This document shows, piece after piece, positions 790 through 4,854 of a DNA stretch of 23,811 nucleotides. The DNA is taken from positions 1-23,811 of the IMG/VR virus record IMGVR_UViG_3300020411_001052; one strand, given 5' to 3'. A model generated the notes under the pieces. It was not told the DNA's origin. It saw only the letters and a program-made list of their open reading frames with translations, and made no database searches. This DNA comes from a virus. A program made the translations under genes and the position numbers. Each line of letters opens with the position of its first letter. Within the stretch, counting starts at the first letter, position 1.

Positions 790-1047
790 GGGTGCTGTTT
801 GTTCCAACTTCTCACTCTCAATTATATCGGACTCATCAGGATTTTCAAAGTTTTGTGTTGATTTCAATGTAGAAAGATAATCTAAGACGTGTTGTCTTAT
901 CTCCATCAAGTCATCGTAACAACCTTGATTGTGAGCACAACCACGCAACTCGTGGTCAGGTTTCATAACTGATTCTGTAAAGAGATCTAATGCTCTTTGA
1001 TATTTTACAGTAGGTGATTCATTACCTACAGATGCTTGATCCTTCAT
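772..1047 (-). CDS. Small conserved-type protein between gp43 and UvsX, unknown function
   Basis: A 91-residue acidic protein that I do not recognise. Its ATG overlaps the gp43 stop codon in an ATGA arrangement, so it is almost certainly translated by ribosomes finishing the polymerase. It has a central stretch with two cysteines (C37, C43) and nearby histidines (H32, H39), followed by a predicted helical segment (DDLMEIRQHVLDYLSTL). There is no signal peptide or membrane segment. The Cys/His spacing is not a convincing zinc finger. Its place between DNA polymerase and UvsX suggests a replication accessory role, but that is only context. The promoter for uvsX overlaps its 3' end. Confidence 0.75.
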   Translation of the reverse strand: MKDQASVGNESPTVKYQRALDLFTESVMKPDHELRGCAHNQGCYDDLMEIRQHVLDYLSTLKSTQNFENPDESDIIESEKLEQTAPLSKWR

Positions 1048-3539
1048 ACGAAAAATTGCTCCAATGTGTTTCTTCTTTCAACTTTCCATTGTATAGCATC
1101 CAGAATAATTTTCAAGGGTTCTAAAAATGACTTGTCAAACTGAGTGTCATAATCGATGTATTTTTGTAAACCCAGTTCTTTTGGAAAATCTTGAATAAAC
1201 GAAATGACGTTTTCATGAATTGGGTTTGGTTTCTTCAGGTAACAGAATTTAATTTTTTCACCATTATTAATTAGTGAATACTTTGTATCCAAATTATTCT
1301 TTTTTATATAGTGATTAAAGAGCAGTGATCCTCTTACATGAATAGGAGTACCTTTGATATAGATGTCAGCATCCCCTTTGAACTTATTAGGATTACTACA
1401 AGATCTTGGGAATGCAACTTCCTCTGGAGTCATTGAACGGAAGTTCTTTCTAGAGTCTGCAATAAAATCAATCACTTCATCTTCAGTTCCTTGCATAACC
1501 ATCTTTAAGGCATCTTTAATCAACTTCCTACATGCAGCAGGTGTTGATGACTTGACTGCCTCAATACCCATCATCTTCAGTTTAGGTTCTTCATATCTAA
1601 CTCCTTCACTATCCCATACGTTTAGAATGTATCTTTTCTTTGCTGTCCAGATACCACGTTCAGCGATGTTCTCTCGCTTCATACTCATTTTCTGATCATA
1701 CGCAGAAACGTAATCAGCAAGTTCCTGATAGGATTTCTCAATGAACGGTTCCAACGTTTCTTTACAGATCTTGTCAAGTATCCCCACAACTGCTGTTTTG
1801 TCCCCAGACTTATCACCAAAAAGTTTATCAACAAGAGGTCCAAGATTAAGATAGATTGAGTCGGTGTCAGATGCGATAACATAATCTACTTCCTCCGTTT
1901 GCAAAAGTTTATTTAGGTATCGATTCATACGTTGTTCAATCCAACGAATAGAAACCTGACCAGACAATGTAATTGCTTCAGCATTTGCTAGTTTGTAATA
2001 CCTGAAGTATTGATTACCAATAGCACCATAAGCAGAGTTAAGAGAAATCTTCTTTGCCATTTGAATGTTGTTGCATCTAGAGATCTCCTTTTCAAGAGTT
2101 TTAGTAGGTTTCTTCTCATACTCCTGTTTCGCTTTGAGCATTCTTTTCTTGAATATAACACGGTCACCATACATCTTCTCCATTAGTTCTGGTAAGAATC
2201 CACGTTTATCTTTACGGAACATTGCACCATTAGCACAGATTGCATTGTCCTTATACATTTCAAAAGTTAGATCCTCCTTGAGTAACTTGTTAACTGTAAT
2301 TGAAGGGTGCTTTTCTTCAAGTAAAGTTTCTGGGGAAATATTATATTGCATGATTAAATGTGGGTATAGACTGTTCAAGTCAAATGATACAACCCAATCA
2401 TAAACACCTGGTACTGGTTCTTTTACATATGCACCTGCATATCTTTCATTCTTACTAGATTCTTCTTTTGGAGGAATAACAATATTCTTTCGTTTGAGGT
2501 AATTGTAAATGATAGTATCCCACATCCTTACCTGATAGAAAACATCAATATAATTTACCTTGGCATCATATGCCATAGTCAAGGCAAGTTCAATCAACTT
2601 CATCTTATCTTCCAACTCATCAACTAGTTCTACGTCAATGATGTTGTATTCAATAAACTTTTGCCAACCTTTTGTATAGAAGTCTTTGAATGTATCATAC
2701 TCAGAGTGATCAAGTTTCTTCTTACCAAGTTCTACTTCAGCAATATAATCTAGTCTATAAGACTCTTGTGCCTTATAAGTAAACTTCTTATAGAGATCAA
2801 GATAATCAAGACATGCTATTCCAGACACATTATAAGAAACATGTTCTCTTCCCATAATCTTTACCTCACCTTTTCTTACCATATTCCAAGGAGAAAATGT
2901 CCTCATCTCTTTTTGACCTAGGACACGATCTATACGACCACAGATATAAGGAATATCATATAAGTTACAGTTCCAACCAGTAATCACATCTGGATAGTTC
3001 TTTGTCCAGAAGGCAAGGAAGGAACGTAGAAGGTGTACTTCACTGTTGCAGTTGATATAACTAACGTTATCTTTCTTGTTTACAAATGCACCTTGACCCC
3101 ATGAAACAATTTGTTTTGTTGCATAGTTTTGAATAGTAATTGCAAGGATCTCTTCAGCAACTGCATCTGTAGTAGGGAAACCATTTTCAGATGCTACCTC
3201 AATATCAATTGTAAATATTCTTACCTTAGATACATCAAATTTAATTTCTTCTTGTGGGTAAGTATCAGAAATATATTGATAGATATACTTATCGTTTCCG
3301 TAGATTGATACGTTCTCTACAGCACTATATTTTTCAATAAAACTTCTACACTCCATCACACTACCAGGTTTGATAGGTGAAACTGTTTCTCCTGATAGAG
3401 TCTTGTACTTAGACTTCTTAGGAGATTTCATAAAAAGAGTCGGAGAAAACTTTTCTCTTGTCTGAAAGTAGTTACCATTATCATAACCACGGACAAGGAA
3501 ATCATCTCCGACTAGTTGGACATTTGTATAGAACTTCAT
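1044..3539 (-). CDS. gp43: Family B DNA polymerase, T4 gp43 type
   Basis: This is the replicative DNA polymerase with 3'-5' proofreading. At 831 residues it is a little shorter than T4 gp43 (about 898). The exonuclease site is intact: Exo I is IDIE, with D112 and E114 at the same numbers as in T4; Exo II is GWNCNLYD, with D195; Exo III lies around YNIIDVE. The polymerase motifs are also intact: motif A DLNSLYPHL, motif B with KKISLNSAYGAIGN, motif C SDTDSIY, and the KKRY motif. Its ATG overlaps the stop of the upstream Sm-like gene (ATGA), and its own stop overlaps the next gene in the same way. It is transcribed from the consensus promoter near 4355-4383, together with two Sm-like genes, and works with the clamp gp45 and loader gp44/62 encoded upstream. 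Confidence 0.97.
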   Translation of the reverse strand: MKFYTNVQLVGDDFLVRGYDNGNYFQTREKFSPTLFMKSPKKSKYKTLSGETVSPIKPGSVMECRSFIEKYSAVENVSIYGNDKYIYQYISDTYPQEEIKFDVSKVRIFTIDIEVASENGFPTTDAVAEEILAITIQNYATKQIVSWGQGAFVNKKDNVSYINCNSEVHLLRSFLAFWTKNYPDVITGWNCNLYDIPYICGRIDRVLGQKEMRTFSPWNMVRKGEVKIMGREHVSYNVSGIACLDYLDLYKKFTYKAQESYRLDYIAEVELGKKKLDHSEYDTFKDFYTKGWQKFIEYNIIDVELVDELEDKMKLIELALTMAYDAKVNYIDVFYQVRMWDTIIYNYLKRKNIVIPPKEESSKNERYAGAYVKEPVPGVYDWVVSFDLNSLYPHLIMQYNISPETLLEEKHPSITVNKLLKEDLTFEMYKDNAICANGAMFRKDKRGFLPELMEKMYGDRVIFKKRMLKAKQEYEKKPTKTLEKEISRCNNIQMAKKISLNSAYGAIGNQYFRYYKLANAEAITLSGQVSIRWIEQRMNRYLNKLLQTEEVDYVIASDTDSIYLNLGPLVDKLFGDKSGDKTAVVGILDKICKETLEPFIEKSYQELADYVSAYDQKMSMKRENIAERGIWTAKKRYILNVWDSEGVRYEEPKLKMMGIEAVKSSTPAACRKLIKDALKMVMQGTEDEVIDFIADSRKNFRSMTPEEVAFPRSCSNPNKFKGDADIYIKGTPIHVRGSLLFNHYIKKNNLDTKYSLINNGEKIKFCYLKKPNPIHENVISFIQDFPKELGLQKYIDYDTQFDKSFLEPLKIILDAIQWKVERRNTLEQFFV

Positions 3540-3793
3540 TTAGTCAAGAACTTTTTGTAATCATCCAAGATAGTTTTGTGAGGATCAACTATTGTTAGGA
3601 TACTATCTGATGATAGCATATTTGATGTCTGAGTGGTATATGCATGTAACCACTTCTTCAACTGGAGAGGTTCTGTGTCTAGGATTTCTACTGGATTGAG
3701 TAACTTACAATCAGGTTCTCCTAATTCTGCTGTTACTTCTTCAATTTCAGTAATTAAAACTGTTCCATTTTTTAAAAGGAGAACTTTGATCAT
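3536..3793 (-). CDS. Small Sm-like-pattern protein upstream of gp43 (paralogue B)
   Basis: An 85-residue protein that I do not recognise by name. It shares an ordered set of motifs with its upstream neighbour (3790-4332) and with the gene at 19151-19561: an N-terminal strand-Gly-strand unit (LLLKNGTVLITEIEEV), then LLNPVEI, then a conserved Trp region (LKKWLHAY), then a hydrophobic strand ending in a Pro (SSDSILTIVDP). The first and last elements resemble the Sm1 and Sm2 motifs of Sm/Hfq RNA-binding proteins; Hfq has a very similar I-S-T-V-x-P ending. That fold is an inference. It is coupled by ATGA overlaps to the genes on both sides, so it is made stoichiometrically with the polymerase. An RNA- or protein-binding adaptor is one possibility. 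Confidence 0.7.
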   Translation of the reverse strand: MIKVLLLKNGTVLITEIEEVTAELGEPDCKLLNPVEILDTEPLQLKKWLHAYTTQTSNMLSSDSILTIVDPHKTILDDYKKFLTK

Positions 3794-4332
3794 TCTGCTG
3801 TTTTATCCTCCAATTCATTTAAAATTTGTTTGACTGATTTAGACTTCTTCTTTTTCTTATTAGATGGATCATCACCTGCTTCTTCATTCAGTTTCTGAAG
3901 GTATGATGCTTCCAAGTCTCTAACTGGTTCATAAACACAAATAATTTTATCTGCAGGAATAGTAAATACTGCTTCTTTAGCAAGAGGTTGCCATGGAATC
4001 AGGTTGATATCAATTTCCTGTTCATTATCTTTTAGTTTTTTATCCTTAAGTAAAGGTTGCTTGTCTGTTAGAAATCTGGAAGGATCACCTGCCATAGGGT
4101 TCTTACCATGACCACCATACAAGTCTCTTAAGTTATCAGAATCTTCTGCACCATCTGCACTACCAAGACCAGGACCAGGTGCCATACCAGGTTCTTGCAT
4201 TCCATCCATCATGATGTCTGGTCTATGTGGGTTGTGAAGTCTGTATCCAATAAGTCTTTCACCTACCAAAACTTCTTCCACACCAGAAATAAGAGTTTCA
4301 CCAGATATTAGATAAACGATCGATACTGTCAT
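3790..4332 (-). CDS. Sm-like-pattern protein with long Met/Gly/Pro-rich insert (paralogue A)
   Basis: A 180-residue protein, first gene of the polymerase transcription unit. It opens with VYLISGETLISGVEEV and L-x-NP, as in its two paralogues in this window. The common pattern is then interrupted by a low-complexity insert of about 65 residues rich in Met, Gly, Pro and Asp (around MQEPGMAPGPGLG). The pattern resumes with INLIPWQPLAKEA, the Sm2-like PADKIICVYEP and a Tyr-containing helix. The C-terminus is a lysine-rich tail (KKKKKSKSVKQILNELED), typical of nucleic-acid or flexible peptide contacts. The start codon lies about 16 bases after the predicted transcription start and has no clear Shine-Dalgarno sequence. 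Function unknown; the Sm-like reading is a hypothesis. Confidence 0.7.
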   Translation of the reverse strand: MTVSIVYLISGETLISGVEEVLVGERLIGYRLHNPHRPDIMMDGMQEPGMAPGPGLGSADGAEDSDNLRDLYGGHGKNPMAGDPSRFLTDKQPLLKDKKLKDNEQEIDINLIPWQPLAKEAVFTIPADKIICVYEPVRDLEASYLQKLNEEAGDDPSNKKKKKSKSVKQILNELEDKTAE

Positions 4333-4354
4333 ATTTGTATAAGGTTATGTTAGC

Positions 4355-4383
4355 ATTATAAAAGGACTCTTGGTTTTTGTCAA
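4355..4383 (-). promoter_or_regulatory. Perfect consensus sigma70 promoter for the gp43 operon
   Basis: Minus strand: TTGACA (4378-4383), a 17-base spacer, then TATAAT (4355-4360). Both hexamers and the spacing are exact consensus. The predicted start is near 4348, about 16 bases before the ATG of the first Sm-like gene. The spacer is one arm of a perfect 12-bp inverted repeat, and the -35 is formed from the other arm plus the loop, so the promoter and a hairpin occupy the same DNA. Confidence 0.85.
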
Positions 4384-4392
4384 GAGTCCTTT
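4361..4392 (-). terminator. Terminator hairpin after hsp20, overlapping the gp43-operon promoter
   Basis: A perfect 12-bp inverted repeat (4361-4372 pairing with 4381-4392) with an 8-base loop begins 16 bases after the hsp20 stop codon. On the minus strand the stem ends in CCTTT followed by TATAAT, so the U-rich tail is short. It probably ends the hsp20 transcript, while transcripts starting from the overlapping promoter begin beyond it and escape. Confidence 0.75.
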
Positions 4393-4407
4393 GAGTTTTA
4401 TTATTTA

Positions 4408-4854
4408 TTAGTTTATAGAATAAACCTTTTTCTTATGATGTTCAGGAATAATCCTCTTTAAATCAATCGTCAATAAACCATCTACAAAATCTACTTTATC
4501 AATTTTGACATCATCAGATAATGTCCATGTGCGAGTAAATGCTCGTCTTGCTAATCCACGATGTACATACTCAGAATCATCATCGTCACCTTTTTTAGCT
4601 TCAACAACTAATTTATTTAATTCAGAGTAAACATCAATATCTTTTCTATGATATCCTGCTAGTGCGATTTCAAGTTTGAAATCTGTATTTGATTCTTTAA
4701 CTAGATTGTATGGGGGATACGATGTCCTCTCACTTGTATGTTGTGCAGCGAGTCTTTGCACCCACTCATCCATACCAATGGTAGTTTTTTCTACATCGTT
4801 TAGAAATTGTACAATGTCATTTACACCATACTTTCTCATGCTAGTCGTCCACAT
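4408..4854 (-). CDS. hsp20: Hsp20-family small heat shock protein
   Basis: A 148-residue alpha-crystallin/Hsp20 chaperone. Such genes are a hallmark of T4-like cyanophages and are thought to hold unfolded proteins during infection or capsid assembly. The alpha-crystallin domain begins at YPPYNLVKES (about residue 47) and continues through the hydrophobic stretch DFKLEIALAGY. The conserved beta-strand end is VDGLLTIDLKR, followed by an I-P-E-H C-terminal extension. The start at 4854 is chosen because a strong Shine-Dalgarno (AAGGAGGT) lies 6 bases upstream. The gene stands alone between two terminators, with its own leader of about 50 bases, so its expression is uncoupled from RegA before it and gp43 after it. 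Confidence 0.93.
   Translation of the reverse strand: MWTTSMRKYGVNDIVQFLNDVEKTTIGMDEWVQRLAAQHTSERTSYPPYNLVKESNTDFKLEIALAGYHRKDIDVYSELNKLVVEAKKGDDDDSEYVHRGLARRAFTRTWTLSDDVKIDKVDFVDGLLTIDLKRIIPEHHKKKVYSIN

What the first reader, a model, noticed from the sequence alone, without database searches (positions are those of the whole stretch)
4355..4392. Perfect consensus promoter built into a perfect terminator hairpin before the polymerase operon
The exact sigma70 consensus (TTGACA, 17 bases, TATAAT) is interleaved with a 12-bp perfect inverted repeat. One arm is the spacer, and the -35 is made from the other arm plus the loop. Upstream hsp20 transcripts meet a hairpin, while transcripts from the promoter begin after it. 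This resembles the promoter-early stem-loop cassettes described for T4-type phages, but fused more tightly. Cruciform formation or factor binding at the repeat could also switch the promoter off.
Basis: partly seen in the sequence, partly recalled or inferred. Interest (0 to 1): 0.72.

Follow-up and report, generated by a model that had tools for sequence, protein, structure and literature searches.

The report
Cyanophage early promoter inside terminator-like hairpin
In a T4-like marine cyanophage, the start signal for the DNA polymerase gene cluster is folded into the hairpin that probably ends the preceding gene's message; related cyanophages repeatedly use this fused stop-and-start element, whereas the two coliphages compared (T4 and RB49) keep hairpin and promoter side by side.

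Summary
On the minus strand, TTGACA-N17-TATAAT (4383-4355) is interleaved with a perfect 12-bp inverted repeat (4392-4361, 8-nt loop). It lies between hsp20 and the DUF6561-DUF6561-gp43 operon of a Kyanoviridae-like T4-type cyanophage. Chance is excluded: the RNA fold has z = -6.6, and in nine variants from close relatives only 2 of 38 element columns vary (32% of leader columns do). In S-T4 and a metagenomic relative the arms are different but still pair perfectly, and the promoter is unchanged.

At this gap 82 of 150 cyanophage-like sequences carry a looser version. There the -35 sits in the loop or a 3' bulge of a hairpin followed by a T-tract. Genome-wide, a strong promoter with a T-tract hairpin nearby has it overlapping the -35/spacer in 70 of 78 cyanophage cases. 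In RB49 and T4 the hairpin is wholly upstream in 17 of 18.

Best reading: a fused terminator/early sigma70 promoter; it works like a PeSL cassette but with the -35 built into the hairpin. Initiation and termination are inferred; no RNA ends were available. The cruciform/operator idea is unsupported. Whether the original PeSL papers describe embedding could not be checked (not held).

The parts
4355..4392 (-). whole composite element (hairpin plus sigma70 promoter)
   Evidence: conserved in close relatives
4378..4383 (-). -35 hexamer TTGACA (TTG in 5' arm, ACA in loop)
4361..4377 (-). 17-nt spacer, containing the whole 3' arm
4355..4360 (-). -10 hexamer TATAAT, abutting the 3' arm; also forms most of the terminator tail (TTTTATAAT)
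4381..4392 (-). 5' arm AAAGGACTCTTG
4373..4380 (-). loop ACAAAAAC
4361..4372 (-). 3' arm CAAGAGTCCTTT
4348..4348 (-). predicted transcription start (inferred, about 7 nt after -10); gives a leader of about 16 nt without a Shine-Dalgarno sequence
   Evidence: inference sequence
4402..4409 (-). late-promoter-like AATAAATA overlapping the hsp20 stop codon
   Evidence: sequence; cyanophage late motif NATAAATA per PMC2984593; ATAAATA upstream of hairpin in 23 of 96 gaps vs 5.7 expected
4408..4854 (-). hsp20 (upstream gene)
   Evidence: Pfam HSP20 1.8e-12, PHROG 432 2e-52
3790..4332 (-). 180-aa DUF6561-like protein (first gene after the element)
   Evidence: PHROG 431 1.7e-20; Pfam DUF6561 6e-5, below the curated cut-off
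3536..3793 (-). 85-aa DUF6561 protein
   Evidence: Pfam 2.4e-27
1044..3539 (-). gp43 DNA polymerase
   Evidence: PHROG 262, 1192 bits
4933..4962 (-). ordinary T-tract hairpin between regA and hsp20, no promoter embedded

Best explanation
A fused intrinsic terminator and early promoter. Transcripts coming out of hsp20 fold the hairpin and stop, at least partly, in the TTTTATAAT tail. The same DNA, read as duplex, is a consensus host-sigma70 promoter whose -35 lies in the hairpin's 5' arm and loop and whose spacer holds the 3' arm, so new transcripts for the DUF6561-DUF6561-gp43 operon start about 7 nt past the -10 and do not carry the hairpin. Fusing both functions insulates the polymerase operon from hsp20 and gives it its own early start in under 40 bp. 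Shown: sequence, fold, conservation, arm replacement with promoter kept, recurrence across cyanophages. Inferred: actual initiation, termination and timing.
For: Consensus 12/12 promoter with 17-nt spacing. Strong hairpin. In nine window-clade variants 2 of 38 element columns vary, one in the loop and one keeping a G-U pair, against 7/22 leader and 19/93 following columns. S-T4 has GACCCCGCTTG/ACAACGAC/CAAGCGGGGTC then TTATAAT, and L150 the same arms: same geometry, different paired arms. At the same gap 82 of 150 cyanophage-like sequences have a T-tract hairpin with an embedded, mostly TTGAC-type -35. Stem pairs covary: 96.6% of cells paired and 58 double changes, vs 88.6% and 18 in column shuffles. 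Stem end to -10 is mostly 10-13 nt. Genome-wide excess: S-T4 9 of 35 and S-SM2 10 of 32 strong promoters overlap a strong hairpin, vs 0.6 of 7 and 1.2 of 6 in shuffles. Cyanomyoviruses are thought to use unmodified host sigma70 polymerase for early genes (PMC2984593).
Against: In the window type the U-tract is cut short by the -10 (tail score of my own, modelled on TransTermHP, -4.5, close to the -4.5 mean of the T-tract types; S-T4 only -3.5), so termination may be weak. A late-promoter-like AATAAATA just upstream would be pointless if termination were complete. No transcript ends were available. No Shine-Dalgarno follows the promoter, unlike many relatives with GGAGG.
Confidence: 0.7

Rival explanations
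1. Interference switch: polymerase that arrives from hsp20 (late in infection) pauses and terminates with its footprint over the -35 and -10, so upstream transcription occludes the early promoter and turns it down when late transcription rises.
For: The predicted termination zone lies inside the -10; late-promoter-like ATAAATA is enriched upstream of these hairpins, 23 of 96 vs 5.7. Fits the same data as the best explanation, as an added consequence.
Against: No expression data; most cyanophage gaps lack the late motif; occlusion could also occur with tandem terminator and promoter.
Confidence: 0.15
2. The inverted repeat is mainly a DNA operator: a dimeric repressor or a cruciform covers the -35 and spacer and switches the promoter off.
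For: Perfect symmetry across -35 and spacer. Phage contigs L034, L037 and L044, from other phages, have promoters inside a similar palindrome (TAGACTCTTGACA...AAGAGTCTA) without a T-tract, in two copies on L034 and L044.
Against: Arm sequence is not conserved between the window clade and S-T4 although pairing is; in the common type the stem base varies by compensatory change and a T-tract follows. That is expected of an RNA hairpin, not of a sequence-specific operator.
Confidence: 0.08
3. The hairpin mainly stabilises the 3' end of hsp20 mRNA (or marks a processing site) and does not terminate; its overlap with the promoter is economy of space.
For: Weak U-tract in the window type and S-T4; strong stem.
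Against: Most relatives with the element have a full T-tract at the same place.
Confidence: 0.07

Closest known systems
PeSL (promoter-early stem-loop) cassettes of T4-type phages (Arbiol et al. 2010; Comeau et al. 2014; papers not held here, content recalled; existence confirmed by citation in PMC4503421)
   Same: Strong sigma70-like early promoter plus terminator stem-loop in one small intergenic unit.
   Different: In RB49 (a genome in which, from memory, PeSLs were described) T-tract hairpins near strong promoters end 38-62 nt before the -10, upstream of the -35 (12 of 13); in T4 5 of 5. Here and in cyanophages the hairpin overlaps the -35/spacer (70 of 78). This element sits between core genes; a role in gene shuffling was not tested.
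Predicted sigma70 promoters and terminators of cyanomyoviruses (Sullivan et al. 2010, PMC3037559; review PMC2984593)
   Same: Same phage group, same host-type early promoters, terminators predicted by TransTermHP.
   Different: The passages read predict the two separately and do not mention one inside the other.
Recycling termination and reinitiation by E. coli RNA polymerase (PMC6978380, PMC11347151)
   Same: A terminator near a promoter can hand polymerase to the promoter in vitro.
   Different: Not shown for phage elements like this; in the passages read terminator and promoter are separate.

Membership tests
sigma70 promoter | TTGACA and TATAAT with about 17-nt spacing | tested here: met
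   12/12, spacer 17
sigma70 promoter | drives transcription | not testable with these tools
   no RNA data
intrinsic terminator | stable GC-containing hairpin | tested here: met
   -17.5 kcal/mol, z -6.6
intrinsic terminator | U-tract directly after the stem | tested here: inconclusive
   TTTTATAAT on the minus strand; the scan listed this hairpin as terminator-like only on the plus strand, where the tail is GAGTTTTATT; tail score -4.5, equal to the mean of relatives
PeSL | strong sigma70-like promoter combined with stem-loop terminator in one intergenic cassette | tested here: met
   promoter and stem-loop present together, termination itself untested; definition recalled, not read
PeSL | stem-loop upstream of, not containing, the -35 (arrangement observed here in RB49 and T4 genomes; not known to be part of the published definition) | tested here: not met
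PeSL | mediates modular shuffling by recombination between copies | not tested
   only one copy in the 23.8-kb window

The most novel reading that the evidence does not exclude
The fusion couples termination to initiation: polymerase that releases the hsp20 transcript at the hairpin stays on the DNA, already over the embedded promoter, and reinitiates on the polymerase operon, so upstream transcription feeds rather than blocks the next operon.
Probability: 0.1. Interest if true: 0.8.

Novelty: new variant of a known kind. Interest (0 to 1): 0.5.

Why it matters
Promoters and terminators are usually treated as separate parts. Here one short DNA stretch is constrained at once as RNA stem, U-tract, -35, spacer and -10, and cyanophages appear to use the fusion with several different hairpins. 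It gives a genome-searchable signature of operon boundaries in abundant marine viruses, and a natural template for testing whether a terminating polymerase can be handed straight to a promoter.

Tried and rejected
Near DNA search of the phage collection found nothing, and a protein search with the 180-aa product found nothing; a distant DNA search gave one partial hit, S-CAM7. The window's record is only this fragment, so copies elsewhere in its own genome could not be counted. The strict hairpin counters missed bulged and odd-length stems and were replaced; their counts are not used. Of 18 gaps flagged as 'abutting', only 11 are true window-type elements (nine window-clade variants, S-T4, L150); the rest are ordinary T-tract types misread by the fold. 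PeSL papers and the Syn9 transcriptome paper are not held. Use as a plus-strand terminator was considered and set aside: the annotated genes around it are all on the minus strand.

Full report
What is there. The window is part of a T4-like cyanophage. gp43 is 74% identical to Synechococcus phage S-SCSM1, and of the six related isolates whose gp43 region was fetched five are Kyanoviridae. The genes near the site run on the minus strand: regA, hsp20, a 180-aa DUF6561-like protein, an 85-aa DUF6561 protein, gp43. The fold is far outside shuffled sequence.

Is it conserved? Contigs encoding close relatives of both neighbours all carry it where the gap is covered. In nine distinct variants the element varies at 2 of 38 columns, once in the loop and once at the stem base where a G-U pair is kept; the leader varies at 7 of 22 columns and the following coding stretch at 19 of 93. 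In Synechococcus phage S-T4 and contig L150, hsp20 and gp43 are again the neighbours, the arms are different (GACCCCGCTTG with CAAGCGGGGTC), and they still pair perfectly around the same TTGACA-N17-TATAAT.

How general is it? I collected 150 distinct sequences downstream of hsp20 from cyanophage-like contigs and isolates. 82 have a hairpin plus T-tract with the -35 (TTGACA, TTGACG or TTGACT in most) inside the hairpin. Commonly it falls at a bulge of the 3' arm, otherwise in the loop; the spacer is the rest of the arm plus the T-tract, and TATAAT usually follows with an extended TG. In 46 sequences in one register the stem base changes by compensation (96.6% of cells paired, 58 double changes, versus 88.6% and 18 after column shuffling), while the upper stem-loop around ACTGG...CCAGT is nearly invariant. 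Related sequences inflate such counts, so I give this moderate weight. The 40 sequences scored 'no promoter' include cases where other genes follow hsp20 directly, so 82 of 150 is probably a lower bound for the element itself.

Genome-wide. In complete S-T4 and S-SM2 genomes strong promoters (at least 11 of 12) overlapping a strong hairpin number 9 of 35 and 10 of 32, against 0.6 of 7.2 and 1.2 of 6.4 in dinucleotide shuffles; in T4 1 of 8, against 1.4 of 8.6. In 1.37 Mb of cyanophage-like loci outside the stored hsp20 gaps it is 54 of 218, against 3 of 66 in local shuffles; some of these are still the same locus in contigs with inserted genes. With a T-tract required, the hairpin overlaps the -35/spacer in 70 cyanophage cases and lies wholly upstream in 8; in RB49 and T4 it is 1 and 17 (Fisher p about 6e-12; related contigs make this p too small). 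In RB49 the typical order is hairpin, T-tract, then TTGACA, with the hairpin ending about 16 nt before the -35.

How it probably works. The RNA from hsp20 contains the hairpin followed by UUUUAUAAU; the duplex is a promoter for unmodified host polymerase, which cyanomyoviruses are thought to use early because they lack alt, modA and modB; they also lack motA and asiA (PMC2984593). New transcripts begin after the hairpin with a leader of about 16 nt and no Shine-Dalgarno sequence (inference). I rate terminator plus early promoter at 0.7. The weak point is the tail: TATAAT interrupts the U-tract, and S-T4 is weaker still. A late-promoter-like AATAAATA sits at the hsp20 stop; ATAAATA is enriched upstream of such hairpins (23 of 96, 5.7 expected). 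If it works, late transcripts would start just before the hairpin, and either read through or interfere with the early promoter.

A possible origin. The S-CAM7 hairpin at this place has CTTGGCAAAAACCAAG; the window has CTTGACAAAAACCAAG. One G-to-A change in the 5' arm would create the embedded -35 there, after which a -10 next to the 3' arm would complete the tighter form. This is inference from two sequences.

Known or new? The closest kind is the PeSL cassette. The two PeSL papers are not held, so I could not check whether any published PeSL has an embedded -35; RB49 and T4 sequences argue that the usual form does not. I therefore call it a new variant of a known kind. A reading not excluded is that the fusion hands polymerase from one operon to the next, because E. 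coli polymerase can remain on DNA after intrinsic termination and reinitiate nearby in vitro (PMC6978380, PMC11347151).

Noticed in passing
hsp20 to DUF6561 gaps in related loci, e.g. around L027:5316-5330: A motif ATCGTYG (often ATATCGTCGCCGC) lies just upstream of the hairpin in 72 of 96 gaps (1.5 expected) but not in the window clade; in S-SM2 a longer form of the motif occurs beside a terminator hairpin only here. Function unknown.
   Followed up: partly
L034:2873, L034:3130, L044:7540, L044:7796, L037 (minus strand): In contigs whose genes do not look T4-like, promoters with TTGACA inside a palindrome TAGACTCTTGACA...AAGAGTCTA without a T-tract, two copies about 257 bp apart on L034 and L044; they look like operator-promoters.
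   Followed up: partly
T-tract hairpins in related loci (one search list): The upper stem-loop ACTGGCAAAATCCAGT is nearly invariant while the stem base covaries, which would fit binding by a protein or a fixed loop requirement.
   Followed up: no
window 4332-4354 and the same place in L149, L150: Window-type elements are followed by short A-rich leaders with no Shine-Dalgarno, whereas many T-tract types have GGAGG or GAGAGG right after the -10.
   Followed up: no
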